A DNA stretch of 64,000 bases from Arcuatula senhousia (taxonomy: Eukaryota; Mollusca; Bivalvia; Mytilida; Mytilidae), in the NCBI GenBank assembly GCA_963971305.1, contig OZ020307.1:8941501-9005500 (forward strand), written 5' to 3'. How positions within the stretch are numbered: position 1 is the stretch's first letter; every line of letters begins with the position of its first letter. Below, one piece after another: positions 2,265 through 58,380 of the stretch. A program made the translations under genes and the position numbers. The notes under the pieces are model-generated. The model had not been told where the DNA came from. It worked only from the letters and a program-made list of their open reading frames with translations, and searched no databases.

Positions 2265-3390
2265 ACCTACCTAATGTCTGCAGTATAACTCGACGGTGGA
2301 GGTATGACAGATTACCGAGCTACCTAATGTCTGCAATATAACCTGAGGACAAAAAGATGACAGATAACTGAGTCACCTAATGTCTGCAGTACAACCCGAC
2401 GGCTGAGGGATGACAGATTTCAGAGCTACCTGATGTCTGCAGTATAATCCGACGGCAGAGGGATGACAGATTACCGAGCTACCTAATATATGCAATATAA
2501 CCCAATGGCGGAGGGAAGATGGATTGCTAAGCTACCTACTGTCTGCAGTATAACCTGAGGACAGAAGGATGACAGATAACTGAGTCACCTAATGTCTGCA
2601 GTATAACCCGACGGCGGAGGGATGACAGATTTCAGAGCTACCTAATGTCTGTAGTATAATCCGACGGCGAAAGGATGACAGATTTGAGAGTTACATAATG
2701 TCTGCAATATAAACTGATGGCGAAAAGATGAGAGATTACAGAGCTACCCAATGAATTATCTAGGACACTGCAGTATAACCCGACGGCGGAGGTATGACAG
2801 GTTACAGAGCTACCTAATTTACTACCGGAGTCACTGTAGTATAACCCTACGGCGTAATGGCAGATTAAAGAGCTACATAATGAACCACCTGGGTCATTGC
2901 AGTATTACCCGACGACGGAAGAATGACAGACTACAGAGCTATCTAATGTCTGCAGTATAAATCGACGACGGAGGGATGACAAACTACAGAGCCATCTAAT
3001 GTTTGTAGTATAACTCGACAGCGTAGAGATGACAGATTACAGAGCTACCTAATGAACCACCTGGGTTAATGCAGTATAACCCGACGGCGGAGAAATGACA
3101 GATTACAGAGCTACCTAATGTCTGCAGTATAACCCGACGGCGGAGGGATAAAAGATTACAGAGTTACCTAATTTCTTCAGTATAACCCGGCGGCGGAGGG
3201 ATAAGAGATAATAGATGTACCTAACGTTTGCAGTTTAACCCAACGGCGGAAGGTTGACATATTTTGGATCTACCTTATTTCTGAAGTATAACCCGACTAT
3301 GGAGGGGGCAGATTAAAGTGCTACCTTATGTCTGCAGTATAACCCGACGGCGGAGGTATGATAGATTAAAGACCTACCTAATGTCTGCAG
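2265..3390. repeat. 53-bp minisatellite, left block
   Basis: About 20 tandem units of roughly 53 bp. Each carries CTGCAGTATAACCCGACGGC followed by GGAGGGATGACAGAT and AGAGCTACCTAATGT. Units vary by point changes and small indels, and some contain a longer spacer with AACCACCTGGGT. It is more GC-rich than its surroundings. The array resumes at about 3833 after a LINE insertion. Confidence 0.93.
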
Positions 3391-3832
3391 ATTTACTCTA
3401 TTATATGGTTCAGAATGCTGGAGGTTAACACAAAAAGATGGCCAAAAATTGAAAGGTTTTTATTCTAGTTGCCTAAAAAAATTTGTAAGATCTACTGGCA
3501 AAAGAAGATAACAAACACCAATCTCTTTGAAAGAACAGGTCAGCAATGCATCATCACTACCATCAAACAGAAACAATTTAAATGGATAGGCCACATAATA
3601 AGAAAAGACCAAAATTCCATCACAAAAACAGCACTGAAATGGACACCAGCAGATGGTAAAAGAAACAGAGGACACCCAAGAGAAACATGGCGGCGGCACA
3701 TCGACAGTGAGGTCAGAAAGATTGGCAAAACCTGGAAAGAGCTAGAGAAGATTGCGATAGATCGACCCAAATGAAGACAACTGGTTTCAGCCTTGTGTGC
3801 CACCAGGAACGAAGAGGATAGGTAGATAGGTC
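3391..3832 (+). pseudogene. LINE (RTE-like) 3' end inserted in the minisatellite
   Basis: C-terminal part of a LINE polymerase of the same general family as the copy at 1-1355. It starts at LLYG-equivalent sequence (about 3397), with a frameshift near 3470. The open part 3469-3774 encodes FKWIGHIIRKDQNSITKTAL, KWTPADGKRNRGHPRETWRR and a stop after IAIDRPK, with SALCATRNEE readable beyond. It ends in a short simple repeat (GGATAGGTAGATAGGT), a 3' tail style typical of RTE elements. Minisatellite units lie on both sides, so this is a 5'-truncated insertion into the array. ATGTCTG flanks both sides, but that motif also belongs to the satellite unit, so it cannot be claimed as a target duplication. 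Not functional. Confidence 0.85.
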
Positions 3833-5235
3833 ATGTCTGAAGTTTAACTCAACGGTGCAGGGATAGGAGATAACAGATCTACCTAATGTCTGCAGTGTAA
3901 CTCGACGGCGAAGGGATGACGGATAACAGATCTACCTTATGTCTGCAGTATAACCCAACGGCGAAAGAATGACATATTATAGATCTCCTTAATTCTGCAG
4001 TGTAAGCCGACGGCGGAGGGATGACAGATTGAAGCGCTTTCTTATGTCTGCAGTATAACCCGACGGCGGAGGGATGACAGATCAAAGAGCTACCTAAGGT
4101 CTGCAGAATAACCCGACGGCGGAGGGATGGCAGATAACAGATCTTCCTAATGTCTGCAGTAAAACCCGACGGAGGAGGGATGACATATTATAGATCTCCT
4201 TTATTTCTGCAGTATAACCGACGGCGGAGGGATGACAGATAAAAGAGCTACCTAATGTCTGCAGTATAACACGACGGCGGAGGGATGACAGATAACATAG
4301 ATACCTAATGAACCACCTGGGTACCTGCAGTATAACCTGACAGCGGAGGGATGACCGATAACAGATCTACCTAATGAAGCAGTATAACACAACGGCGGAG
4401 GGATGACAGATAACAGAGATACCTAATTAACCACCTGGGTAACTGCAGTATAACCCGGCGGATGAGAAATCACAGATAACAGATCTACCTAATGAAGCAG
4501 TATAACACAACGGCGGAGGGATGACAGATAACAGAGATACCTAATAAACCACCTGGGTAACTGCAGTATAACCCGGCGGCGGAGAAATCACAGATAAAAG
4601 AGCTACCTAATGTCTGCAGTATAACACGACGGCGGAGGGATGACAGATAAAAGAGCTACCTAATGTCTGCAGTATAACACGACGGCGGAGGGATGACAGA
4701 TAACATAGATACCTAATGAACCACCTGGGTACCTGCAGTATAACCTGACAGCGGAGGGATGACCGATAACAGATCTACCTAATGAAGCAGTATAACACAA
4801 CGGCGGAGGGATGACAGATAACAGAGATACCTAATAAACCACCTGGGTAACTGCAGTATAACCCGGCGGCGGAGAAATCACAGATAAAAGAGCTACCTAA
4901 TGTCTGCAGTATAACACGACGGCGTAGGGATGACAGATAACAGAGATACCTAATAAACCACCTGGGTAATTGCAGTATAACCCGATGGCGTAGGGATGAC
5001 AAATAACAGATCTACATAATGAACCACCTGGGTAATTGCAGTATAACCCGAAGGTGGAGGGATGACATATAACAGATCTACCCAAATGAACCACCTGGGT
5101 AACTGCAGTATAACCCGACGGCGGGGGGATGACAGATTACAGAGTTACCTAATGAACCACCCGGGTAACATCAGTTTAACCCGACGGCAGAGGAATGGCA
5201 GATAACAAATCTACCTAATGAACCACCTGGAACAG
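3833..5235. repeat. 53-bp minisatellite, right block
   Basis: Continuation of the 53-bp array with about 25 units. Here many units alternate between the short junction (CCTAATGTCTGCAG) and a longer one (CCTAATGAACCACCTGGGTA), giving a compound period. The last clear unit ends near 5230, where unique AT-rich sequence begins. Confidence 0.92.
4254..4925. repeat. Higher-order duplication within the 53-bp array
   Basis: A multi-unit block starting at the CTGCAGTATAACACGACGG unit near 4258 recurs starting near 4669. Unit types come in the same order: long-junction unit, CTGACAGC unit, AATGAAGCAG short unit, then GGAGAAATCACAG unit. The first copy holds one extra pair of units. This points to recent multi-unit unequal exchange. 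Confidence 0.75.
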
Positions 5236-21710: not shown

Positions 21711-24419
21711 AAAGTCAAAAACACTGCACATTTACCTTAACAGAAGACAGTATTTGTATAATATTATACAAAGATTGATATGTATAGCGTTTTACCATAT
21801 GACAATTATAATATAGGTTGGTATTTATTCTTAAAATGTAAATAAAAACACACACTTTTGCTTCTTGAAGGCCGTTGTTTCGGCCTGGTAGACTGTGTAA
21901 TGTTTTATTTACACGAAGAAAATCATTTTGATTAGGTTATTTGGACTGTTGCACCATTTTATAGCACTAAACAATTCTATCAAAATTTCAGAAGGCACAT
22001 TTCAATAAATATCATAATTTTAAAAGAAATATCGAACAGCGATTTTTTATAGTTTGATTTGAATACTAGATTTCGAGAAGTATTAAAAGAATGTGTGTAA
22101 TATCAGTATTTCACAGTGAAGGCCTTTTATGACCAAAATCTCTTTCCATTTGCCATATTTATTGAAATATTTGTACTTGAAATATAATAAAAGTACTATA
22201 ATGTCCACGAAGCTGTTAACAAGTTATTCAGAAGATGTTTTTAATTGGAGCTTCAATTATATATATATTTATTGAGGTTAGATAGTTACCATGCAGGAGC
22301 AATTGAGTTGAAAAATCGACTCGGCTTAAATTGTCAAAATTTGTCAAAATGATTTTTTTACATAAGAAGATTGATTTTTCTCGTTCTGTTTCAATCCCGA
22401 TAAGGACAATCCTGACTTTGTCTACCCAAAGAACTGTGGAGTTAGCCTGACCTCGCTGCCCAAAGAATCACGGAGTTTGCCTGACTTTGGCTACCCATAG
22501 AACCATGTTTGTATTCTTACATCTCTTACAAGTAGAAAAGTTTATAATGAAATCTATTAACAGGTTGTTGTTGAACTTTTATATACGTTACTTTTCCCGC
22601 CAACTGATTCTTAGACATTTAAAAAAAATCTCTTGATTATAATGAGAGAATGCAGCTTACATTTTTATGCATGTGTACTGGCCGAAGTTCGAGAGTTACA
22701 AAAATTGTAAACCTCTTCCGCCTGAAGGAAAGTATATAATAATGTTTAAATTTAAGTTTTTTAATAATGTTCATTGTCCTTGCTTTGTTGACGACTCTAA
22801 TGTTTGAATGTTTTCTGTTTTACTGAGGTTACTTAATATGTCATTGAATGTGTATAACAAAATCTTTGATGCTTCGTTATGTATAATAGTTCGACATATT
22901 TCTTACATGACCGACAACCAAACCTGAAGAAAAGTAGAGTAAAAAAAAAGAGTAATTAAAAATGTAGAGTAACAAAAAACAGTAGAATCGCAAAAAATGT
23001 AGAGTAAAAAAAAAGAGTAATAAAAAATGTAGAGTAACAAAAAAAAAGTTAAAATAACAAAAAACTCTTATACTGAACAGATGTTAGACCAAATGTCAAT
23101 AGACAGTTTATGAACCCCAAGAAGAAAAGTGGAAATTAACTTTTAGTTAGAAGCGGCTCCTTGCAGAAAGTTGTTTATGTAAATATTACAAGGAACATTC
23201 GTTGATGAATTATTAGATTAATAAGTAATGTCAATCCGTTAAAACATAAAACAATGCAATTTTTTTGAATTTTTAGTCGTTATCTGTACGGTTAAGCGTA
23301 AAAGGAAATTCCAATACCTTATTCATGTCTGAAAGGCAAATGAATTTATCATGCATAATACAAGATGTTAAATTTTAATATTAATACTATATCAGTTATA
23401 CTGCATCTTTCCCCTGGCTGAATACAATGATTAAATCTCTAGATTTGTACACAAGGGGAAAAGAATTTCCCTTTCATTGAATTATATGCTTAGTAGAATG
23501 AATTTGAATTAGAAAATTGTATTTTCTTTTATTTTTAAAACAATTAATAATTTAAAATGAAAACTTCACTCCTTGAACTACATACTGCTTGATATTCTCA
23601 GGCTAAATTTAACTTCTCTTTTTGAACTTTTGGGAATGATAACTTCTCTTGTTGCAGGTCCTTTATGCCTATTAGGCCAACATTAGCACCAAACATTTTA
23701 GTAAAAGTTTTTGTAAGAGAACCAACGAAGTGTGCGTGAAGGGAAGAATCCATCTGCATAAATTACATACATGTATTTAAGAGAAATCGATTGCGCCACA
23801 TGTTTATTTTTAGAGGTTTCTTAATATGCGTCAGTTTTCGGAACTTATTTGCGCAAATTCAATGGCCTGTTCAAGTTTTGAACCATCAACTATATTATAT
23901 ACTACGACCACTGGATTGGGTAATTGTGTCATCTTGTATGACGGGCAGTCGGGCAATAAAATAACCAAAAAAATAAAACTGATCATAAACCATAAAAGTT
24001 CACCGTGCGGATAAAAAAATCCACGTTCCTTACATAGTACAAAGAACTGAAACAGGTCTCAATAACAGTAGGACCAGATGAAACCCCCTTTTTTCAGTGG
24101 CAGTGATAACTCGCTACCACGATTGACCCCGTGACCCACTTCATCATCTTTTATGTATAGCCATGCTTGAGCTGTTTGGGAGTAAAGCAACATAACTTAC
24201 TAATAATATTCCATTTTCGACCCTATATTTCTTTTGGCTCAAATGTTTCTGAGTCATTGAATTATCCATATACAACATTATCATCGTCTAAAAAGCAACA
24301 TTTGAACGCAGAGAAAATGCTCGTACATCACAGCAAGTATAATGCTTACTTTTCGGTAAATCAATATTTTGGACGACTGTTTCCATACCCAGTAGCGACT
24401 TGTCTTTAGTGGGGACAGG
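21711..24419. other. AT-rich region with low-complexity block
   Basis: Nothing recognised except a low-complexity tandem block at 22926-23065, with a period of about 65 bp, built of GTAGAGTAA followed by A-runs and GAGTAAT, and a short degenerate three-fold repeat around 22410-22500 (GCCTGACTTTG ... CTACCC). Confidence 0.5.
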
Positions 24420-24995
24420 CGTTGTCAATATTTTATGAAAGGATATGGGGTAAATAAACATGAGACCATAACACATAAATAAACTCCAACTGCAATTATT
24501 TTTATGAGCTGTTTGGCCATTTCGGAATTTTATTTCTAATCACCAGCTTTAGAACCAAAGCATAAGAAATTAAACAAGCGTTGAAAATGCATAAAACCAA
24601 ATAAAATCCGAATAATCAGTTATATCAAATAAATATAATGACAGACTTCGACGAAGGGAGTTAAACAGAATTTACATAAATTAAGATACTATAGTTATAC
24701 TAGTACTATATATTAGTTTATCAACGTGTACACATGCGATACGATCTAATGTACAAGTACGCCATATCTCAGAAAAATAAAGAGCATACATCAGAAACAC
24801 AGGGAACTCCACACGGCATTAAAGGCAAACTCCTGTAATAAATATTTTATGAAAGGATATGGAGTATAAATGTACATGAATCCTTAACACATAAATAAAC
24901 CCCAACTGCAATTAATTTTTACATGTTTTAGAGCTGTATGGTCATTTCGTAATTTTATTCCTCGTCAGCAGCACTAGAACCCAAACATAGGAAAT
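24420..24995 (+). repeat. Diverged direct repeat, ~150 bp twice
   Basis: The block at 24425-24575 (ATTTTATGAAAGGATATGG, CACATAAATAAAC, CCAACTGCAATTA) recurs at 24842-24995 in the same orientation, about 415 bp downstream, with many differences. No known family. Confidence 0.7.
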
Positions 24996-29209: not shown

Positions 29210-30478
29210 AAGAAGCAAAGGTGTACCAAAGGGGTAAACAACATATTAAAACCATAAAGACAAAGACAAAACCGGTAGACAAAAAATCATCTTAACGAAA
29301 CAAACCACACAACATAAAACACATACACACATACACACACACATAACAACAAAACCGTATTCAGGAACGTGAGCTCAAGTCGAAACGAGAGTGAACTCAG
29401 GAAGAGTAAGCAGTTCCTGCTTGCTTTAGCACCCCGTCACGTTGCCAAAGATCGATTTAGCGTTGGTCAAATCAAGAAAGGATGACATTACCAAACTCAA
29501 TGTCAAACCAACATCTGTGCTCATCTGAGAAATAGAAATCCCGTATTTGTCTATTAGTGCATGATGTCTTCCGTAGAATTTCTTGAGTGATGACAACAAC
29601 CTGGAAGCAACGTACACCTGTGTTAACAATTTGCTTGTCAGCCGTGTAGCTCTATCAAGGAGTCGTTGTAATCCCCGCATGCTCTGGAATAACGAGTCAA
29701 TTGTGATGCGTAAACCCCACATGCCGGAGCGGACGGAACGTTGCTACACAGAAAAGGAAAGTTAACTATTGGAAAATTGAAGTCATTACGTTTGACACAG
29801 AGCTTTGTACAAATCCTTCCTAGTGTGTCAATTTCGAGAATTAGATCCAAATATGAAGCAGACCTCCTAGAATCTGTAGTGTCCTTTATCTCAAGTTCCT
29901 TCGGATATAAGAGATGTAAATAGTCACCAAATCGAGGATTGTTTAGTGAAAGGACATTATCAATATAACGAGCAAGTTTGCGGTCCTTTTTGTCTAGAAG
30001 TGATTGTAAGAAGTCCGCTTCATATGAATGAAGAAACAAATCGGCAAGCAATGGTGCACAATTTGTGCCCATTGGTTACCTATCGTCTGCTGAAAAATAC
30101 GTCCAGCAAACTGTACAAATATCTTGTCGATTAGTAAGTATTTTTATTATTTGATATTCTTTAAATTTGTTTTTCTTGCTACACTCTTGGATGACAAAAT
30201 AAGTCTTTTTATAACCGACTACCAAATACTTGTACCTGCGTTTTCCGTTCTTCTTGATAAAGCTACGTTTAATCAACTGGGCCAAACGAGATTTTAATTG
30301 TGAATGTGGAATTGAAGTATATGATGTAGAGAAATCAAAAGTTTTAATACTACTGCATGATGAAAATGTCTTCGAATGGAGACTTTCCATCAGTTCTTTA
30401 GAATTTTGAAAATCCACAATTGATTGACGTCATTTCTAGAGTAACAAAAATCGAAATACTTTTGAAGGCTTGATTTTA
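29210..30478 (-). mobile_element. Penelope-like retroelement inserted in the 42-bp array
   Basis: Minus-strand element running from about 30478 to 29210. It consists of a reverse transcriptase pseudogene (30417-29426) and a ~245-bp 3' tail with the conserved stem-loop at 29408-29422 and a (CA)-rich segment near 29320-29345. Minisatellite sequence abuts both ends. The 5' part, including any N-terminal domain, is absent. The tail matches truncated copies at 1.9, 13.1, 13.6, 33.0, 36.4, 41.7 and 60.0 kb. Confidence 0.85.
29426..30417 (-). pseudogene. Penelope-like reverse transcriptase, decayed
   Basis: The polymerase of the element above; it would copy element RNA to DNA. In order on the minus strand: MDFQNSKELME and FDFSTSYTSIP (motif A, first catalytic Asp) at about 30417-30300, KKNGKRRYKYLVVGYKKTYF, a frame change, MGTNCAPLLADLFLHSYEAD from 30072, YIDNVLSLNN, SASYLDLILEIDT, FPIVNFPFLCSN, a frame change, KLLTQVYVASRLL and KKFYGRHHALIDKYG, ending near 29426. 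The catalytic YIDD is YIDN, and about seven residues before it are missing compared with the 32-kb copy, so it is inactive. No GIY-YIG nuclease follows the polymerase. That fits the Naiad-type Penelope-like elements, whose nuclease is N-terminal; this assignment is inference. Confidence 0.85.
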
Positions 30479-30480
30479 TA

Positions 30481-31345
30481 TATACCACCATTTATACATA
30501 TTTTGGGTGAATGCTGATGACATATACCACCATTGATACATATTTTTGGGTGAATGCTGATGACATATACCACCATTGATACATATTTTGGGTGAATGCT
30601 GACCACATATACCACCATTGATACATATTTTGGTGAATGCTGATGACATATACCACCATTGATACATATTTTGGGTGAATGCTGACCACATATATCACCA
30701 TTGATACATATTTTTGGTGAATGCTGATGACATATACCACCATTGATACATATTTTGGGTGAATGCTGACCACATATATCACCATTGATACATATTTTTG
30801 GTGAATGCTGATGACATATACAACCATTGATACATATTTTGGGTGAATGCTGACCACATATATCACCATTGATACATATTTTTGGTGAATGCTGATGACA
30901 TATACAACCATTGATACATATTTTGGGTGAATGCTGACCACATATATCACCATTGATACATAACTTGGATGAATGCTGATGACATAAAACACCATTGAAA
31001 CATATTTTGGGTGAATGCTGATGACATAAAACACCATTGAAACATATTTTGGGTGAATGCTGATCACATATACCACCATTGATACATATTTTGGGTGAAT
31101 GCTGACCACATATATCACCATTGATACATAACTTGGATGAATGCTGATGACATAAAACACCATTGAAACATATTTTGGGTGAATGCTGATGACATAAAAC
31201 ACCATTGAAACATATTTTGGGTGAATGCTGATGACATAAAACACCATTGAAACATATTTTGGGTGAATGCTGATCACATATACCACCATTGATACATATT
31301 TTGGGTGAATGCTGATCATATATACCTCCATTGATCCATATTTGG
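30481..31345. repeat. 42-bp minisatellite, ~20 units
   Basis: Tandem units of 42 bp: ACCACCATTGATACATATTT, TGGGTGAATGCTGA, then either TGACATAT or CCACATAT. Variants have ACATAAAACACCATTGAAAC or ACTTGGATGAATG. Variant types alternate in pairs, giving an 84-bp or larger super-period in the middle. Because 42 is 14 codons, a long minus-strand frame (30492-31331) reads through with a 14-residue repeat; this is not evidence of a protein. Confidence 0.95.
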
Positions 31346-31388
31346 GTGAATGCTTTGCAAATTATTAGTATAGAATGTATCTACGACA

Positions 31389-46888: not shown

Positions 46889-46897
46889 ACAAATAGA
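46889..46897 (+). repeat. Target-site duplication, left
   Basis: ACAAATAGA immediately before the element's first base. The same nine bases follow its last base at 56673-56681. Confidence 0.9.
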
Positions 46898-46910
46898 ATG
46901 GACGTCAAGT

Positions 46911-47262
46911 TGGTTACTTATTCCTTATTCCCTATTCGTTACTTATTCCCTATTCCCTATTCGTTACCTATTCGTTACTTATTCCCTATTCCCTATTCGT
47001 TACCTATTCGTTACTTATTCCCTATTCCCTATTCGTTACCTATTCGTTACTTATTCCCTATTCCCTATTCGTTACCTATTCGTTACTTATTCCCTATTCC
47101 CTATTCGTTACCTATTCGTTACTTATTCCCTATTCCCTATTCGTTACCTATTCGTTACTTATTCCCTATTCCCTATTCGTTACTTATTCGTTACTTATTC
47201 CCTATTCCATATTCGTTACTTATTCCCTATTCCCTATTCGCTACTTATTCGTTCAACGAATG
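46911..47262 (+). repeat. 36-bp minisatellite, left terminus
   Basis: About eight units of 36 bp, each TATTCGTTACC, TATTCGTTACT, TATTCCC, TATTCCC (11+11+7+7). The same pieces occur once in each 169-bp unit as the CATTCGTTACCTATTCG segment, suggesting local expansion of that segment. Frames of 126-176 codons arise because 36 is a multiple of three. Confidence 0.93.
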
Positions 47263-50067
47263 GAAAACGAATAGGTAACAGGCTTTTCACAGCTAGAAAA
47301 TACATGCGATCGGCACTTTATTGCCATTAAAAGATTGGTTATGTCAAGTCTGACTGCCTGTTACCTCACTTATACCAATAAAAAGTATTATAGTAGGGCC
47401 GATGTACGCTAGATCGAAAAGGAAACGAATAGGTATCAGGCTTTTCACAGTTAGAAGACACATGCGATCTTCATTTTATTGTCATGAAAAGACAGATTAT
47501 GTCAAGTGTGACTGCCAGTAACCTCATTTATCCCAATAAAAAGTTTGTAAGGAGGGCCGATATACACTAGTTTGGATAGGCAATATATAGGAATGGGTAT
47601 CAGGCTTTTCACAGCTAAAAGACACATCAGATTTGCACTTCATTGTTATGAAAAGATTAACCATGTCAAGTCTGATTGCCATTTACCCCATTTATCCCAT
47701 TTTTCCCAATAAAAAAGTCTTTAAGTAGGGCCAATATACGCTTGCTTGAATAGGCAACGAATGGGAAACGAATAGGTAACAGGCTTTTCACAGCTAAAAG
47801 ACACATGAGATCTGCACTTTATTGTCATGAAAAGATTAACCATGTCAAGTCTGACTGCCTGTTACCTCAGTTATCCCAATAAAAAGTATTTTAGTAGGGC
47901 CGATATACGCTAGTCCGAATAGGCAATGAATGGGAAACGAATTAGTAACAGGCTTTTCACAGCTGAAAGACACATGAGATCTGCACTTTAATGTCATGAA
48001 AAGATAGATTATGTCAAGTCTGACTGCTAGTAACCTCATTTATTCCAATAAAAGGTCTTTAAGTAGGGCCAATATACGCTAGTTCGAATAGGCAACGAAT
48101 GGGAAACGAATAGGTAACAAGCTTTTCACAGCTTAACGACGCATGATATCTGCACTTTATTGTCATGAAAAGATAGATTATGTCAAGTCTGACTGTCAGT
48201 AACCTCATTTTTCCTAATAAAAGGTATTTTAGTAGGGCCTCATCGCTAGTCCGATAAGGCAATGAATGGGAAACGAATAAGTAACAGGCTTTTCACAGCT
48301 GAAAGACACATGAGATCAACCCTTTATTGCTATGAAAATTATGTCAAGTCTCAGTTTTAACCTCATTTATCCTAATAATCAATCTATTGGTAGGGCAGAT
48401 TTTCTGTATTTCGAATAAGAAACGAATGGAAAACGAATAGGTAACAGGCGTTTCACAGCTAGAAGACACATGAGATCTACATTTTATTGACATGAAAAGG
48501 TTAATTATGTCAAGTCTCAATGTCTGTAACCTCACTTATCGCAATAATTAATCTTTTGGTAGGGCAGATTGACGATATTGCGAATAGGAAACGAATAGGT
48601 AACAGGCGTTTCACAGCTAGAAGACACATGAGATCTACACTTTATTGACATGAAAAGGTGAATTATATCAAGTCTCATTGCCTCTAACCTCATTTATCCC
48701 AATAATTAATCTAATGGTAGGGCAAATTAACGCTATTTCGAATAGGTAACGAATGGGAAACGAATAGGTAACAAGCGTTTCAAAGCTAGAAGAAACATGA
48801 GACCTACACTTTATTGACATGAAAAGGTTAATTATATCAAGTCTCATTGCCTCTAACCTCATTTATCCCAATAATCAATCTATTGGTAGGGCAGATTTTC
48901 GGTATTTCGAATAAGAAACGAATGGGAAACGAATAGGTAACAGGCTTATCACAGCTAAAAGACACATGAGATCAACCCTTTATTGCTATGAAAAGGTTAA
49001 TTATGTCAAGTCTCATTGCCTCCAACCTCATTTATCCCAATAATCAATCTATTGGTAGGGCAGATTTTCGGTATTTCGAATAAGAAACGAATGGGAAACG
49101 AATAGGTAACAGGCTTTTCACAGCTAGAAGACATATGAGATCAATCCTTTATTGCTAGGAAAAGGTTAATTATGTCAAGTCTCATTGCCTGTAACCTCAC
49201 TTATCGCAATAATTAATCTTTTGGTAGGGCAGATTGACGATATTGCGAATAGGAAACGAATAGGTAACAGGCGTTTCACAGCTAGAAGACACATGAGATC
49301 TACACTTTATTGACATGAAAAGGTTAATTATGTCAAGTCTCATTGCCTGTAACCTCATTTATCCCAATAATCAATCTATTGGTAGGGCAGATTTTCGGTA
49401 TTTCGAATAAGAAACGAATGGGAAACGAATAGGTAACAGGCTTTTCACAGCTAGAAGACATATGAGATCAATCCTTTATTGCTATGAAAATGTTAATTAT
49501 GTCAAGTCTCATTGCCTGTAACCTCACTTATCGCAATAATTAATCTTTTGGTAGGGCAGATTGACGATATTGCGAATAGGAAACGAATAGGTAACAGGCG
49601 TTTCACAGCTAGAAGACACATGAGATCTACACTTTATTGACATGAAAAGGTTAATTATGTCAAGTCTCATTGCCTGTAACCTCATTTATCCCAATGATTA
49701 ATCTAATGGTAGGGCAAATTAACGCTATTTCGAATAGGTAACGAATGGGGAACGAATAGGTAACAAGCATTTCACAGCTAAAAGACACATGAGACCTACA
49801 CTATATTGACATGAAAAGGTGAATTATATCAAGTTTCATTCCCTGTAACCTCATTTATCGCAATAATTAATCTTTTGGTAGGGCAGATTGACGATATTGC
49901 GAATAGGAAACGAATAGGTAACAGGCGTTTCACAGCTAGAAGACACATGAGATCAACCCTTTATTGCTATGAAAAGGTTAATTATGTCAAGTCTCATTGC
50001 CTCTTACCTCATTTATCCCAATAATCAATCTATTGGTAGGGCAGATTTTCGGTATTTCGAATAAGAA
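47263..50067 (-). repeat. 169-bp satellite, left arm (~17 units)
   Basis: Minus-oriented units of about 158-179 bp, mostly 169. Landmarks on the plus strand: GGTAACAGGC(T/G)TTTCACAGC, GACACATGAGATC, TTTATTG(T/A)CATGAAAAG, TATGTCAAGTCT, CCTCATTTATCCCAATAA, GGTAGGGC and GAATGGGAAACGAATAGG. Two types occur. Type A (47.28-48.29 kb) has GGGCCGATATACGCTAG and GTCTGACTGCC. Type B (48.3-50.07 kb) has GGGCAGATT and GTCTCATTGCC. Short frames of 64 codons recur and are non-coding by-products. Confidence 0.93.
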
Positions 50068-53000
50068 AGTGCAGATCGAATGTGTCGTTTAGCTATGAAA
50101 AGCCTGTTACCTATTCGTTTCCCATTCGTTGCCTATTCGAACTAGCGAATATCGGCCTTACTAAAAGACTTTTTATTGGGATAAATGTGGCTACTGGCAG
50201 TCAGACTTGACATAATCAATCTTTTCATGACAATGAAGCGCAGATTGCATGTGTCTTCTAACTGTGAATAGCCTGTTACCTATTCGTTTTCCATTCGTTG
50301 CCTATTCGAACTAGCGTATATCGGCCCTAATAAAAGACTTTTTATTGGGATAAAAGAGGCTACTGTCAGTCAGACTTGACATAATTTATCTTTTCATGAC
50401 ATTAAAGTGCAGATCTCATGTGTCGTTAAGCTATGAAAAGCTTGTTACATATTCGTTTCCCATTCGTTGCCTATTCGAACTAGCGTATATCGGCCCTACT
50501 AAAAGACTTTTTATTTCGATAAATGAGGTTACTGGCGGTTACACTTGACGTAATCAATCTTTTCATGACAATATAGTGCAGATTGCATGTGTCTTCTAAC
50601 TGTGAATAACCTGTTACCTATTCGTTTCCCATTCGTTACCTATTCGCAATATCGTCAATCTGCCCTACCAAAAGATTAATCATTGGGATAAATGAGATTA
50701 CAGGCAATGAGACTTGATATAAATAACCTTTTCATGTCAATAAAGTGTAGATCTCATGTGTCTTCTAGCTGTGAAACGCCTGTTACCTATTCGTTTCTTA
50801 TTCGCAATATCGTCAATCTGCCTTACCAAAAGATTAATTATTTGGATAAATGAGGTTACAGGCAATGCAACTTGACATAAATAACCTTTTCATGTCAATA
50901 AAGTGTAGATCTCATGTGTCTTCTAGCTGTGAAACGCCTGTTACCTATTCGTTTCTTATTCGCAATATCGTCAATCTGCCCTACCAAAAGATTAATTATT
51001 TGGATAAATGAGGTTACAGGCAATGCAACTTGACATAATAAACCTTTTCAAAGCAATAAAGGGTTGATCTCATGTGTCTTTTAGCTGTGAAAAGCCTGTT
51101 ACCTATTCGTTTCCCATTCGTTTGTTATTCGAAATACCGAAAATCTGCCCTACCAATAGATTGATTATTGGGATAAATGAGGTAAGAGGCAATGAGACTT
51201 GATGTAATTAACCTTTTCATGTCAATATAGTGTAGTTCTCATGTGTCTTATAGCTGTGAAACGCTTGTTACCTATTCGTTTCCCATTCGTTACCTATTCG
51301 AAATAGCGTTAATTTGCCCTACCATTAGATTAGATATTGGGACAAATGAGGTTAGAGGCAATGAGACTTGATATAATTCACCTTTTCATGTCAATAAAGT
51401 GTAGGTCTCATGTGTATTTTAGCTGTGAAATGCTTGTTACCTGTTCGTTTCCCATTCGTTACCTATTCGAAATAGCGTTAATTTGCCCTACCATAAGATT
51501 AATTATTGCGATAAGTGAGGTTACAGGCCATGAGACTTGACATAATTAACCTTTTCATAGCAATAAAGGATTGATCTCATATGTCTTCTAGCTGTGAAAA
51601 GCCTGTTACCTATTCGTTTCCCATTCGTTTCTTATTCGAAATACCGAAAATCTGCCCTACCAATAGATTGATAATTGGGATAAATGAGGTAAGAGGCAAT
51701 GAGACTTGATGTAATTAACCTTTTCATGTCAATAAAGTGTAGGTCTCATGTGTCTTCTAGCTTTGAAACGCTTGTTACCTATTCGTTTCCCATTCGTTAC
51801 CTATTCGAAATAGCGTTAATTTGCCCTACCATTAGATTAGATATTGGGATAAATGAGGTTAGAGGCAATGAGACTTGATATAATTCACCTTTTCATGTCA
51901 ATAAAGTGTAGGTCTCATGTGTATTTTAGCTGTGAAATGCTTGTTACCTGTTCGTTTCCCATTCGTTACCTATTCGAAATAGCGTTAATTTGCCCTACCA
52001 TAAGATTAATTATTGCGATAAGTGAGGTTACAGGCCATGAGACTTGACATAATTAACCTTTTCATAGCAATAAAGGATTGATCTCATATGTCTTCTAGCT
52101 GTGAAAAGCCTGTTACCTATTCGTTTCCCATTCGTTTCTTATTCGAAATACCGAAAATCTGCCCTACCAATAGATTGATTATTGGGATAAATGAGGTAAG
52201 AGGCAATGAGACTTGATGTAATTAACCTTTTCATGTCAATAAAGTGTAGGTCTCATGTGTCTTCTAGCTTTGAAACGCTTGTTACCTATTCGTTTCCCAT
52301 TCGTTACCTATTCGAAATAGCGTTAATTTGCCCTACCATTAGATTAGATATTGGGATAAATGAGGTTAGAGGCAATGAGACTTGATATAATTCACCTTTT
52401 CATGTCAATAAAGTGTAGGTCTCATGTGTATTTTAGCTGTGAAATGCTTGTTACCTGTTCGTTTCCCATTCGTTACCTATTCGAAATAGCGTTAATTTGC
52501 CCTACCATAAGATTAATTATTGCGATAAGTGAGGTTACAGGCCATGAGACTTGACATAATTAACCTTTTCATAGCAATAAAGGATTGATCTCATATGTCT
52601 TCTAGCTGTGAAAAGCCTGTTACCTATTTGTTTCCCATTCGTTTCTTATTCGAAATACCGAAAATCTGCCCTACCAATAGATTGATTATTGGGATAAATG
52701 AGGTAAGAGGCAATGAGACTTGATATAATTAACCTTTTCATGTCAATAAAGTGTAGGTCTCATGTGTCTTCTAGCTTTGAAACGCTTGTTACCTATTCGT
52801 TTCCCATTCGTTACCTATTCGAAATAGCGTTAATTTGCCCTACCATTAGATTAATTATTGGGATAAATGAGGTTACAGTTAATGAGACTTGATATAATTC
52901 ACCTTTTCATGTCAATAAAGTGTAGGTCTCATGTGTCCCTTAGCTGTGAAATGCTTGTTACCTATTCGTTTCCCATTCGTTACCTATTCGAAATAGCGTT

Positions 53001-56000
53001 AATGTGCCCTACCATTAGATTAATCATTGGGATAAATGAGGTTACAGGCAATGAGACTTGACATAATTAACCTTTTCATGTCAATAAAGTGAAGATCTCA
53101 TGTGTCTTCTAGCTGTGAAACGCCTGTTACCTATTCGTTTCCTATTCGCAATATCGTCAATCTGCCCTACCAAAAGATTAATTATTGCGATAAGTGAGGT
53201 TACAGGCAATGAGACTTGACATAATTAACCTTTTCATAGCAATAAAGAGTTGATCTCATGTGTCTTTTAGCTGTGATAAGCCTGTTACCTATTCGTTTCC
53301 CATTCGTTTCTTATTCGAAATACCGAAAATCTGCCCTACCAATAGATTGATTATTGGGATAAATGAGGTTAGAGGCAATGAGACTTGATATAATTAACCT
53401 TTTCATGTCAATAAAGTGTAGGTCTCATGTGTCTTCTAGCTGTGAAACGCTTGTTACCTATTCGTTTCCCGTTCGTTACCTATTCGAAATAGCGTTAATT
53501 TAATGCCCTACCATTAGATTAATCATTGGGATAAATGAGGTTACAGGCAATGAGACTTGACATAATTCACCTTTTCATGTCAATAAAGTGTAGATCTCAT
53601 GTGTCTTCTAGCTGTGAAACGCCTGTTACCTATTCGTTTCCTATTCGCAATATCGTCAATCTGCCCTACCAATAGATTGATTATTGGGATAAATGAAGTT
53701 AAAGGCAATGAGACTTGATATAATTAACCTTTTCATGTCAATAAAGTGTAGGTCTCATGTGTCTTCTAGCTTTGAAACGCTTGTTACCTATTCGTTTCCC
53801 ATTCGTTACCTATTCGAAATAGCGTTAATTTGCCCTACCATTAGATTAATTATTGGGATAAATGAGGTTACAGTTAATGAGACTTGATATAATTCACCTT
53901 TTCATGTCAATAAAGTGTAGGTCTCATGTGTCCCTTAGCTGTGAAATGCTTGTTACCTATTCGTTTCCCATTCGTTACCTATTCGAAATAGCGTTAATGT
54001 GCCCTACCATTAGATTAATCATTGGGATAAATGAGGTTACAGGCAATGAGACTTGACATAATTCACCTTTTCATGTCAATAAAGTGTAGGTCTCATGTGT
54101 ATTTTAGCTGTGAAATGCTTGTTACCTGTTCGTTTCCCATTCGTTACCTATTCGAAATAGCGTTAATTTGCCCTACCATAAGATTAATTATTGCGATAAG
54201 TGAGGTTACAGGCCATGAGACTTGACATAATTAACCTTTTCATAGCAATAAAGGATTGATCTCATATGTCTTCTAGCTGTGAAAAGCCTGTTACCTATTC
54301 GTTTCCCATTCGTTTCTTATTCGAAATACCGAAAATCTGCCCTACCAATAGATTGATTATTGGGATAAATGAGGTAAGAGGCAATGAGACTTGATGTAAT
54401 TAACCTTTTCATGTCAATAAAGTGTAGGTCTCATGTGTCTTCTAGCTTTGAAACGCTTGTTACCTATTCGTTTCCCATTCGTTACCTATTCGAAATAGCG
54501 TTAATTTGCCCTACCATTAGATTAGATATTGGGATAAATGAGGTTAGAGGCAATGAGACTTGATATAATTCACCTTTTCATGTCAATAAAGTGTAGGTCT
54601 CATGTGTATTTTAGCTGTGAAATGCTTGTTACCTGTTCGTTTCCCATTCGTTACCTATTCGAAATAGCGTTAATTTGCCCTACCATAAGATTAATTATTG
54701 CGATAAGTGAGGTTACAGGCCATGAGACTTGACATAATTAACCTTTTCATAGCAATAAAGTGAAGATCTCATGTGTCTTCTAGCTGTGAAACGCCTGTTA
54801 CCTATTCGTTTCCTATTCGCAATATCGTCAATCTGCCCTACCAAAAGATTAATTATTGCGATAAGTGAGGTTACAGACATTGAGACTTGACTTAATTAAC
54901 CTTTTCATGTCAATAAAGTGTAGATCTCATGTGTCTTCTAGCTGTGAAACGCCTGTTACCTATTCGTTTCCCATTCGTTTCTTATTCGAAATACAGAAAA
55001 TCTGCCCTACCAATAGATTGATTATTAGGATAAATGAGGTTAGAAACTGAGACTTGACATAATTTTCATAGCAATAAAGGGTTGATCTCATGTGTCTTTC
55101 AGCTGTGAAAAGCCTGTTACTTATTCGTTTCCCATTCATTGCCTTTTCGGACTTGCGATGAGGCCCTACTAAAATACTTTTTATTGGGATAACTGAGGTA
55201 ACAGGCAGTCAGACTTGACATGGTTAATCTTTACATGACAATAAAGTGCAGATATCATGTGTCTTTTAGCTGTTTAAAGCCTGTTACCTATTCGTTTCCC
55301 ATTCGTTGCCTATTCGAACTAGCGTATATTGGCCCTACTAAAATACCTTTTATTAGGAAAAATGAGGTTACTGACAGTCAGACTTGACATAATCTATCTT
55401 TTCATGACAATAAAGTGCAGATATCATGCGTCGTTTAGCTGTGAAAAGCTTGTTACCTATTCGTTTCCCATTCGTTGCCTATTCGAACTAGCGTATATTG
55501 GCCCTACTTAAAGACCTTTTATTGGGATAAATGAGGTTACTGGCAGTCAGACTTGACATAATCTATCTTTTCATGACATTAAAGTGCAGATCTCATGTGT
55601 CTTTCAGCTGTGAAAAGCCTGTTACTTATTCGTTTCCCATTCATTGCCTATTCGGACTAGCGTATATCGGCCCTACTAAAATCCTTTTTATTGGGATAAC
55701 TGAGGTAACAGGCAGTCAGACTTGACATGGTTAATCTTTTCATGACAATAAAGTGCAGATCTCATGTGTCTTTTAGCTGTGAAAAGCCTGTTACCTATTC
55801 GTTTCCCATTCGTTGCCTATTCAAGCAAGCGTATATTGGCCCTACTTAAAGACTTTTTTATTGGGAAAAATGGGATAAATGGGGTAAATGGCAATCAGAC
55901 TTGACATGGTTAATCTTTTCATAACAATGAAGTGCAAATCTGATGTGTCTTTTAGCTGTGAAAAGCCTGATACCCATTCCTATATATTGCCTATCCAAAC

Positions 56001-56290
56001 TAGTGTATATCGGCCCTCCTTACAAACTTTTTATTGGGATAAATGAGGTTACTGGCAGTCACACTTGACATAATCTGTCTTTTCATGACAATAAAATGAA
56101 GATCGCATGTGTCTTCTAACTGTGAAAAGCCTGATACCTATTCGTTTCCTTTTCGATCTAGCGTACATCGGCCCTACTATAATACTTTTTATTGGTATAA
56201 GTGAGGTAACAGGCAGTCAGACTTGACATAACCAATCTTTTAATGGCAATAAAGTGCCGATCGCATGTATTTTCTAGCTGTGAAAAGCCT
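50068..56290 (+). repeat. 169-bp satellite, right arm (~37 units)
   Basis: Same satellite in the opposite orientation. Order from the centre: type A (50.07-50.6 kb), type B (50.6-55.1 kb), type A (55.1-56.29 kb). The outer A and adjoining B units are collinear with the left arm. The inner A block and much of the B block have no collinear partner on the left, so the right arm is about 3.4 kb longer. Confidence 0.92.
51339..52870 (+). repeat. 507-bp higher-order repeat (3 x 169 bp)
   Basis: Three consecutive 507-bp blocks, starting near 51339, 51846 and 52353, are nearly identical, while the three units inside each block differ. The same trimer reappears at about 54024-54530 and partly again from 54531. 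A further segment of at least 370 bp at 52690-53060 recurs 995 bp downstream at 53685-54055. Confidence 0.88.
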
Positions 56291-56307
56291 GTTACCTATT
56301 CGTTTTC

Positions 56308-56659
56308 CATTCGTTGAACGAATAAGTAGCGAATAGGGAATAGGGAATAAGTAACGAATATGGAATAGGGAATAAGTAACGAATAAGTAACGAATAGGGA
56401 ATAGGGAATAAGTAACGAATAGGTAACGAATAGGGAATAGGGAATAAGTAACGAATAGGTAACGAATAGGGAATAGGGAATAAGTAACGAATAGGTAACG
56501 AATAGGGAATAGGGAATAAGTAACGAATAGGTAACGAATAGGGAATAGGGAATAAGTAACGAATAGGTAACGAATAGGGAATAGGGAATAAGTAACGAAT
56601 AGGTAACGAATAGGGAATAGGGAATAAGTAACGAATAGGGAATAAGGAATAAGTAACCA
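56308..56659 (-). repeat. 36-bp minisatellite, right terminus
   Basis: Exact inverted counterpart of the left terminal array, with the same number and order of units as far as I can read, including the variant unit next to the satellite junction (CATATTCG). Confidence 0.93.
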
Positions 56660-56672
56660 ACTTGACGTCCAT

Positions 56673-56681
56673 ACAAATAGA
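56673..56681 (+). repeat. Target-site duplication, right
   Basis: ACAAATAGA directly after the element's last base, matching 46889-46897. Confidence 0.9.
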
Positions 56682-57699: not shown

Positions 57700-58380
57700 C
57701 ATACACCGTATGGTAATATAGGATAAAGCTGTATAGCGAATATCAGACCTCTATCTCATGTAGTTGCTTGGTTGGCAAATTGTGGCGAAAATTCTTCATG
57801 TCCATTATGCGTAAAGTCTAAGTATTTGGTAAGCAGGAAGTAGATAAACTAAGAGCATAAAATTGGTATACACCATATGGTACTAAATAATAAAGCTGTA
57901 TACAAAATATCAGACCTCTATCTCATGAAGTTGCTTGGCTAATTTTTACGGAAATTTTGCATGGATGTCCATTATGTGTAAAAACCCAAGTAATCGGTAA
58001 AAAGGAAGTAGATAACCTAGAAGCATAAAATCTGTATACACCATACGGTACTATATATAGGATAAAGCTGTGTTCAAAATATCAGACCTCTATTTCATGT
58101 ACAATGTATTTGCTTGGCAAATTGTGACGGAAATTTTGCATGGATGTTCATTTATTATGTGTAAAAACCCAAGTAATCGGTAAGCAGGAAGAAGATAACC
58201 TAGGAGCATAAAATCGGTATACACCATATGACACTATAGGATAAAGCTATTTGCAAAATATCAGATCTCTACGTAAAGTACCGGTACTTACTCAAGAACT
58301 GTGACGGACATTTTGTTACGGACGAACGGACAAGGGTTAAACAGTATACCCCCTCTTCTTCGAAGCGGGGGTATAATGAG
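57700..58380 (+). repeat. ~170-bp tandem repeat, four units
   Basis: ACACC(A/G)TATGG-type starts at 57703, 57870, 58040 and 58221. Shared landmarks are AGGATAAAGCTGT, ATATCAGACCTCTAT, TTGCTTGG, GTGTAAAAACCCAAGTAATC and GGTAAGCAGGAAGTAGATAA. The last unit is degraded and ends in a hairpin, TATACCCCC paired with GGGGGTATA, at 58345-58375, a terminal structure I associate with common mollusc repeats. Confidence 0.85.

What the first reader, a model, noticed from the sequence alone, without database searches (positions are those of the whole stretch)
46889..56681. A 9.8-kb Foldback-like element made entirely of satellite DNA
Seen: long inverted ends, exact 9-bp direct repeats (ACAAATAGA) at both borders, terminal tandem repeats, no coding sequence. 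Known: Drosophila FB elements combine inverted repeats made of short tandem repeats with 9-bp target duplications; Mutator-like elements also make 9-bp duplications. Inferred: a whole satellite array is being, or has been, carried as a transposon, a direct route for seeding satellite DNA at new loci.
Basis: partly seen in the sequence, partly recalled or inferred. Interest (0 to 1): 0.92.

Follow-up and report, generated by a model that had tools for sequence, protein, structure and literature searches.

The report
Giant jumping element built from satellite
A stretch of satellite DNA in this animal genome is a mobile element: nearly thirty relatives of up to fifty thousand bases sit at other places, most flanked by the nine-base duplication that a jump leaves behind, so satellite DNA here spreads by jumping and then grows where it lands.

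Summary
The element is 46898-56672 (9,775 bp) between exact 9-bp duplications (ACAAATAGA): two inverted arms of 169-bp satellite capped by identical 356-bp ends of 36-bp repeats. It is not unique. Its terminal 16-mer occurs 90 times in the 1.04-Gb genome (reversed control 0), giving 29 two-ended elements of 1.2-50.3 kb: 22 with exact 9-bp duplications, 1 with 8 bp, 1 cut by a contig start but matching, 4 with none, 1 untestable. For the 50-kb copy an empty site is visible in the host satellite it interrupted. At least 22 of 29 contain a non-satellite core whose edges were found only inside these elements; the window copy lacks it. Ends and core edges are shared between loci, while array middles are most alike within one arm: seeded by transposition, enlarged in place. 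No transposase was found in the copies examined. The 9-bp duplication, and Mutator-type genes in this genome whose flanks are also inverted tandem repeats, suggest a Mutator-like transposase acting in trans (inferred). It works like Foldback elements (Tetris, Tm1), but fetched arms reach 17 kb. New variant of a known kind.

The parts
46889..46897 (.). left 9-bp target site duplication ACAAATAGA
   Evidence: exact copy at 56673-56681
46898..47253 (+). left outer terminal inverted repeat: terminal ATGGACGTCAAGTTGG, then a 36-bp tandem repeat (8.2 copies)
   Evidence: 356 of 356 identical to the reverse complement of the right end; TRF; terminal 16-mer 90x in genome
47254..50066 (-). left satellite arm, about 17 monomers of 169 bp (strand sign is relative to the right arm)
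   Evidence: TRF, satellite map, inverted alignment to the right arm
50030..50110 (.). region where the arms meet; larger relatives carry a core between the arms (8.4-20.4 kb in the three read whole)
50067..56316 (+). right satellite arm, about 37 monomers of 169 bp
   Evidence: TRF, satellite map
56317..56672 (-). right outer terminal inverted repeat with 36-bp tandem repeat, ending CCAACTTGACGTCCAT
56673..56681 (.). right 9-bp target site duplication ACAAATAGA

Best explanation
A non-autonomous terminal-inverted-repeat DNA transposon of Foldback architecture. SHOWN: copies with the same ends sit at many loci, most of them between 9-bp target duplications; the eight two-ended copies read whole (window, C7:27.4M, C8:49.8M, C9:52.1M, C13, C15, C465, C2:75.0M) have the same plan: 36-bp-repeat ends and satellite between them, with or without a core or core remnant. 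SHOWN: outer ends are more alike between loci than array middles are, and array middles contain copy-specific segmental tandem duplications. INFERRED: a transposase made elsewhere in the genome, most likely of the Mutator (MULE) superfamily, recognises the terminal 16-22 bp and perhaps the repeated motifs, and inserts the unit with a 9-bp staggered cut. INFERRED: between jumps, unequal exchange in the tandem arms lengthens and shortens them, and conversion between the two arms of a copy keeps them alike in some copies. INFERRED: the window copy is a core-less derivative of the larger elements.
For: 90 exact terminal 16-mers vs 0 in the reversed control; 29 two-ended elements (26 exact pairs; C15, C64, C1655 added; recount). 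Target duplications: 22 exact 9 bp, 1 of 8 bp, 1 with 7 of 7 visible bases, 4 none, 1 untestable. Empty site of the 50.3-kb C465 copy in flanking host satellite (96.7% over 120 bp, one 1-base gap away from the joint). Core left edge in 19 places (18 at 96-100%, C15 in two pieces) and right edge in 22 places (two split), all inside these elements. C9:56.5M core collinear with C13 over about 9.5 kb at 97.3-98.9%, with the same reverse-transcriptase-bearing insertion, which C465 shares in part and C15 lacks. Register: 708 of 845 windows at 0-1 kb, falling to near chance beyond 4 kb. Median best identity, outer 1.5 kb: 0.982 to other copies vs 0.837 within the arm; beyond 6 kb: 0.965 vs 0.991. Segmental duplications inside arms; core and satellite matches of C7:61.3M recur at a 19,326-bp spacing. 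2 of 10 MULE transposase loci have inverted tandem-repeat flanks.
Against: No transposase was found in the cores examined, and 0 of 132 genomic MULE matches lies inside an element; the 10 MULE loci examined do not show the terminal motif at fewer than 3 mismatches. 4 of 28 testable pairs lack a target duplication, three of them short (1.2, 1.3, 3.8 kb) and one 31.9 kb. 35 of the 90 terminal matches are single ends. In the outer 1.5 kb, 46 of 126 windows are still most like the same element. Insertion polymorphism between individuals could not be tested.
Confidence: 0.9

Rival explanations
1. A small foldback element with short arms inserted at each locus and almost all satellite length arose afterwards by local unequal exchange, so arrays themselves do not travel.
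For: Beyond 6 kb the same element holds the best match in 114 of 156 windows (median 0.991 within the arm vs 0.965 to other copies); register is lost beyond about 2-3 kb; arm lengths differ widely between copies whose cores are about 98% identical (C13 left arm 4.4 kb; C9:56.5M about 12.7 kb from coordinates).
Against: The copies read whole have satellite with outer blocks of roughly 1-3 kb in the same register, and core-bearing ones also share 0.2-1.2 kb next to the core, so the transposed ancestor already had satellite arms of about a few kb; no satellite-free version with a core was seen among those read.
Confidence: 0.3
2. The transposase belongs to another superfamily that can make 8-9 bp duplications (for example Merlin, recalled), and the Mutator label is wrong.
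For: No transposase found in the elements; Foldback architecture is convergent, e.g. Galileo is a P element (PMC3573991, passages).
Against: 22 of 23 complete duplications are 9 bp, within the 8-11 bp of MULEs (PMC6446971 passages); MULEs with inverted tandem-repeat flanks are present in the same genome.
Confidence: 0.2
3. A static palindromic satellite or assembly artefact, not a mobile element.
For: Long inverted repeats and satellites are prone to mis-assembly.
Against: 22 loci with exact 9-bp duplications of differing sequence at the element borders, an empty site, no N in the stretches held.
Confidence: 0.02
4. A Helentron-type element carrying central satellite repeats, as in oysters.
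For: Those also disperse satellite-like repeats (PMC7492417, passages).
Against: The oyster elements show no target duplication and only subterminal inverted repeats; here 9-bp duplications and long terminal inverted repeats are present.
Confidence: 0.02

Closest known systems
Tetris (Drosophila virilis Foldback; PMC4079207: passages, part 1 of Results and of Discussion)
   Same: Foldback plan; tandem repeats (about 220 bp) inside the terminal inverted repeats; 8-10 bp target duplications; no transposase found; repeats expand into satellite inside the element; a short motif shared between outer end and repeat unit (37 bp there; about 22 bp here).
   Different: Tetris inverted repeats reach 1,735 bp, only three structurally complete copies were found, and its authors suggest that large arrays may disrupt transposition. 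Here fetched arms reach 17 kb, 17 elements over 20 kb have exact 9-bp duplications, and there is a shared core (8.4-20.4 kb in the three read whole).
Tm1 (Mutator/Foldback family of root-knot nematodes; PMC3169594, abstract and passages)
   Same: Composite ends with variable numbers of tandem units; 9-bp target duplications (8-10 bp in 45 of 53 there); many non-autonomous members.
   Different: Tm1 units are 13-15 bp, 1-9 per end; a Phantom-like transposase is known in one group. Here units are 36 bp plus 169-bp satellite arms and no transposase is linked.
Drosophila FB elements
   Same: Inverted repeats made of tandem repeats, 9-bp duplications.
   Different: FB repeats are short modules; no satellite arms of many kilobases (recalled).
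Cg_HINE Helentrons of Pacific oyster (PMC7492417, passages)
   Same: A transposon disperses satellite-like arrays of 140-180 bp monomers.
   Different: Rolling-circle type, no target duplication, longest array about 29 monomers.
Galileo (P superfamily, Foldback-like; PMC3573991, passages)
   Same: Long inverted repeats, some with internal tandem repeats that expand and contract; chimeric copies lack matching duplications.
   Different: 7-bp duplications, ends up to about 1.26 kb.

Membership tests
Foldback-type (architecture) | long terminal inverted repeats composed of tandem repeats | tested here: met
Foldback-type (architecture) | dispersed copies flanked by target site duplications | tested here: met
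   22 of 28 testable pairs exact 9 bp
Mutator (MULE) superfamily | 8-11 bp target duplication | tested here: met
   22 of 9 bp, 1 of 8 bp
Mutator (MULE) superfamily | MULE DDE transposase encoded by a family member with the same ends | tested here: not met
   0 of 132 PF10551 matches inside an element (150 of 284 candidates scored); no Pfam match at E 0.1 in 20 of the core frames; 10 MULE loci lack the end motif. So it is not filed as a proven MULE.
Tetris family | sequence similarity to Tetris ends or TIR-220 | not tested
   no Tetris sequence was fetched; comparison is by structure only
Helitron/Helentron | no target duplication, no terminal inverted repeats | tested here: not met
P superfamily (Galileo) | 7-bp duplication | tested here: not met
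   9-bp duplications; a P-type transposase was not searched for
Classical satellite DNA | long arrays independent of a transposon | tested here: inconclusive
   the 150 listed of 232 satellite matches lie in paired elements or in contig C716, which bears one terminal motif, but only 13 of 177 candidate regions were scored

The most novel reading that the evidence does not exclude
A satellite family that lives only inside a transposon and travels as whole arrays of tens of kilobases: the tandem arms are themselves the functional ends (many transposase binding sites), so array growth and mobility help each other instead of opposing each other, and the family is an active engine that seeds new satellite and heterochromatin at arbitrary loci, including inside other satellites.
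Probability: 0.3. Interest if true: 0.85.

Novelty: new variant of a known kind. Interest (0 to 1): 0.74.

Why it matters
How satellite DNA reaches new loci is a long-standing question. In Tetris the proposed course is one-way: the repeat expands and the element is disrupted. Here elements over 20 kb (52-61% satellite in the three read whole) have intact ends and exact target duplications at 17 loci, one of them inside another satellite. The family offers a natural series (core-bearing, core-less, short, without duplications) in which seeding by transposition and growth in place can be separated, and a testable claim that long tandem arms do not prevent transposition.

Tried and rejected
Assembly artefact and static palindrome: rejected by many independent duplications and the empty site. 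Helentron: rejected by target duplications. An autonomous copy among the large elements: cores of C13, C15 and C465 were read whole, that of C9:56.5M and one of the two in C7:61.3M in large part. They are mosaics with a retroelement fragment (a 96-aa frame whose DNA is a common repeat), a reverse-transcriptase-bearing insertion that I call a LINE (RVT_1 match in C13; its DNA also in C465, C9:56.5M and C7:61.3M) and, among these only in C465, a Pao-type retrotransposon piece. No transposase was recognised; the searched frames are 20 of the core frames, 18 from C13 and 2 from C15, out of 80 listed for C13 alone (LINE part left out). Two single ends with an odd continuation (L102, L103) were read for 1.2 kb: no transposase recognised; L103 meets the 36-bp-type repeat again after about 570 bp, L102 does not. 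'All arrays travel complete': not supported beyond a few kb. The window's own empty site could not be searched. In the outer-arm tree the C7:27.4M right arm is an outlier, probably because I cut that short element at an arbitrary point; both C7:27.4M arms were dropped as queries (not as targets), and the C2:75.0M arms were dropped. One search failed on a too short search term.

Full report
WHAT IS THERE. The window lies in an unnamed 1.036-Gb assembly of 1,803 contigs at C5:8941501-9005500. The element spans 46898-56672 (9,775 bp). Left and right 9-bp duplications ACAAATAGA are exact. Each end begins ATGGACGTCAAGTTGG and runs on as a 36-bp tandem repeat (8.2 copies, 99% matches); the outer 356 bp of the two ends are identical. 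Inside lie two arms of a 169-bp satellite, in inverted orientation, about 17 and 37 monomers, meeting near 50066. A 22-bp stretch (CGAATAGGTAACGAATAGGGAA) of the 36-bp unit matches the satellite monomer at 95%. The only frames of 110 aa or more touching the element are the 36-bp repeat read in several frames.

A FAMILY OF GIANT ELEMENTS. The terminal 16-mer has 90 exact matches (43 forward, 47 reverse) against 0 for the reversed control. Pairing each + match with the next - match on the same contig within 51 kb gives 26 elements; three more (C15 and C64 with one mismatch at one end, C1655 with its right end cut by the contig end) come, so 29 in all. Lengths run from 1,185 to 50,334 bp, median 31,864; 21 of 29 exceed 20 kb; the total is about 834 kb (C1655 counted to its contig end). 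The other 35 matches are single ends; I read short pieces of 19 of these, of which 17 continue into a recognisable 36-bp-type repeat by eye.

TARGET DUPLICATIONS. Of 29 pairs, 22 have an exact 9-bp duplication, 17 of them on elements over 20 kb; one has 8 bp (C9:2.4M); C64 starts 7 bases after its contig start and those 7 match; four have none (C2:54.4M, C2:75.0M, C10:51.3M, C10:58.6M); C1655 cannot be tested. The four without could be recombinants between copies, as suggested for chimeric Galileo copies (PMC3573991, passages). The 50.3-kb C465 copy sits in a 165-bp satellite of other sequence: its joined flanks with one CCCCTTATA match an uninterrupted neighbouring monomer at 96.7% over 120 bp, the single 1-base gap lying away from the joint; a second neighbour matches at 93.9% over 99 bp and one on the right side at 87.9%. 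This is an empty site.

THE CORE. C13, C15 and C465 have 10.9, 8.4 and 20.4 kb of non-satellite DNA between the arms; C3:74.1M shows at least 2.6 kb of the same core in the piece fetched, and C8:49.8M keeps 668 bp of its right edge. C13 and C465 cores align at 97.6-99.3% over the long shared parts, C13 and C15 at 91-97%. A genome search with the left edge finds 19 places (18 at 96-100%, plus C15 in pieces) and with the right edge 22 places (two of them split); all lie inside the listed elements, C7:61.3M having two, and together they mark a core in 22 of 29 elements. The other rows of both searches are partial matches, mostly 82-86%, to dispersed repeats; each search scored only 40 of its candidates (4,032 and 3,435). 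The C9:56.5M core is collinear with C13 for about 9.5 kb at 97.3-98.9%, with the same LINE-like insertion. I infer that core and arms moved together. The window copy, C9:52.1M and C7:27.4M have no core and are best read as deletion derivatives (inference).

TRANSPOSITION PLUS GROWTH IN PLACE. On 16 arms I asked whether a 400-bp window finds its best match in another arm at the same distance from the end: 708 of 845 at 0-1 kb, 222 of 939 at 1-2 kb, 53 of 871 at 2-3 kb, 29 of 756 at 3-4 kb (18 expected), 16 of 495 at 4-5 kb (11 expected), then at or near chance. Blocks next to the core are also shared in register, 0.2-1.2 kb, at 84-99% identity (lowest with C15). Longest in-register blocks between loci: C13 right/C465 left 3,103 bp at 98.2%, C3/C465 left 2,991 bp at 96.9%, C13 right/C3 2,854 bp at 97.0%. 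With 338-bp windows on 14 query arms the outer 1.5 kb is on the median more alike between loci (0.982 vs 0.837 within the arm; another copy is best in 74 of 126 windows, the same element in 46, tie 6), whereas beyond 6 kb it is more alike within the arm (0.991 vs 0.965; same element best in 114 of 156, another copy in 34, tie 8). Arms hold their own segmental tandem duplications (C465 right 4,576 bp at 98.6%; C4 2,929 bp at 98.3%; C13 right 2,462 bp at 98.3%), and in C7:61.3M core edges and satellite matches recur at a 19,326-bp spacing. The two arms of one copy can be nearly identical (C9:52.1M 99.5% over 3,578 bp; window 99.6% over 1,342 bp) and pair on a tree in the window, C8:49.8M and C9:52.1M copies but not in C15 or C465, which suggests conversion between arms in some copies. 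So the satellite is carried to new loci by transposition in arms of about a few kb at least, and much of the final length is made locally.

WHICH TRANSPOSASE. No Pfam match was found in 20 core frames, and none was recognised by eye in 80 frames of the C13 core. PF10551 has 132 matches in the genome (150 of 284 candidates scored); none lies inside an element (compared by coordinates). Of 10 MULE loci fetched, none shows the end motif at fewer than 3 mismatches or the satellite, but 2 of 10 have matching inverted tandem-repeat arrays on both sides of the transposase: L057 (19-bp units, 790-aa frame) and L061 (21-23-bp units, 374-aa frame); I saw no target duplication at those two. A third (L060) is an AT-rich low-complexity match within a palindromic stretch and is not counted; seven showed no such pair. 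Tandem-repeat ends therefore also occur on transposase-bearing MULEs of this genome. With the 9-bp duplication this makes a MULE acting in trans the best guess; it is not proven.

IS THE SATELLITE ELSEWHERE? A 341-bp satellite query gave 232 matches; the 150 listed fall in paired elements or in C716, a contig that carries one terminal motif. Only 13 of 177 candidate regions were scored, so free arrays are not excluded.

KNOWN KINDS. Foldback elements with satellite-forming tandem ends are known: Tetris (ends up to 1,735 bp, 8-10 bp duplications, three complete copies) and Tm1 (9-bp duplications). Mutator elements in a broad survey have ends of 14-500 bp in its text, and Rehavkus has 9-bp duplications and a minisatellite (PMC6446971 passages). 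Oyster Helentrons carry up to about 29 satellite monomers without duplications. I saw no title or abstract describing Foldback elements of 20-50 kb with satellite arms in my seven searches, which cover open-licence PMC papers only.

Noticed in passing
G000:C465 around 24200-24713 and 75048-76000 (L017, L022): A second, unrelated 165-bp satellite is the host of the 50-kb insertion; one satellite-bearing transposon has landed inside another satellite.
   Followed up: yes
G000:C7:61318728-61368305: This copy contains two core starts and two core ends at a 19,326-bp spacing, and satellite matches at the same spacing: apparently a tandem duplication of core plus array.
   Followed up: partly
G000:C12:9065274, 9082859, 9100444, 9118029: Four terminal motifs exactly 17,585 bp apart; the first two were read and share one 25-bp flank, as does C12:10244905: a tandem duplication of a larger unit, or an assembly feature.
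   Followed up: partly
L061 (G000:C10:29573000-29579500) and L057 (G000:C2:57152000-57159000): Transposase-bearing MULE loci whose flanks are inverted arrays of 21-23-bp and 19-bp tandem repeats; several other loci have a 374-aa MULE frame like that of L061.
   Followed up: partly
L060 (G000:C1089:5500-13000): A 2.2-kb inverted repeat at 99.6%, with MULE domains in both orientations on the contig.
   Followed up: no
window 2267-5230: Large array of 53-bp repeats with longer higher-order variants.
   Followed up: no
window 30480-31354 and 29638-30429 (-): A 42-bp tandem array that keeps long open frames, beside reverse-transcriptase-like frames (PMGTNCAPLLADLF, recognised from memory); related fragments (KLYDKRDD..., CSCEKSPF...) occur in the element core.
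   Followed up: partly
window 57701-58271: A separate 167-bp tandem repeat (3.3 copies) 1 kb outside the element.
   Followed up: no
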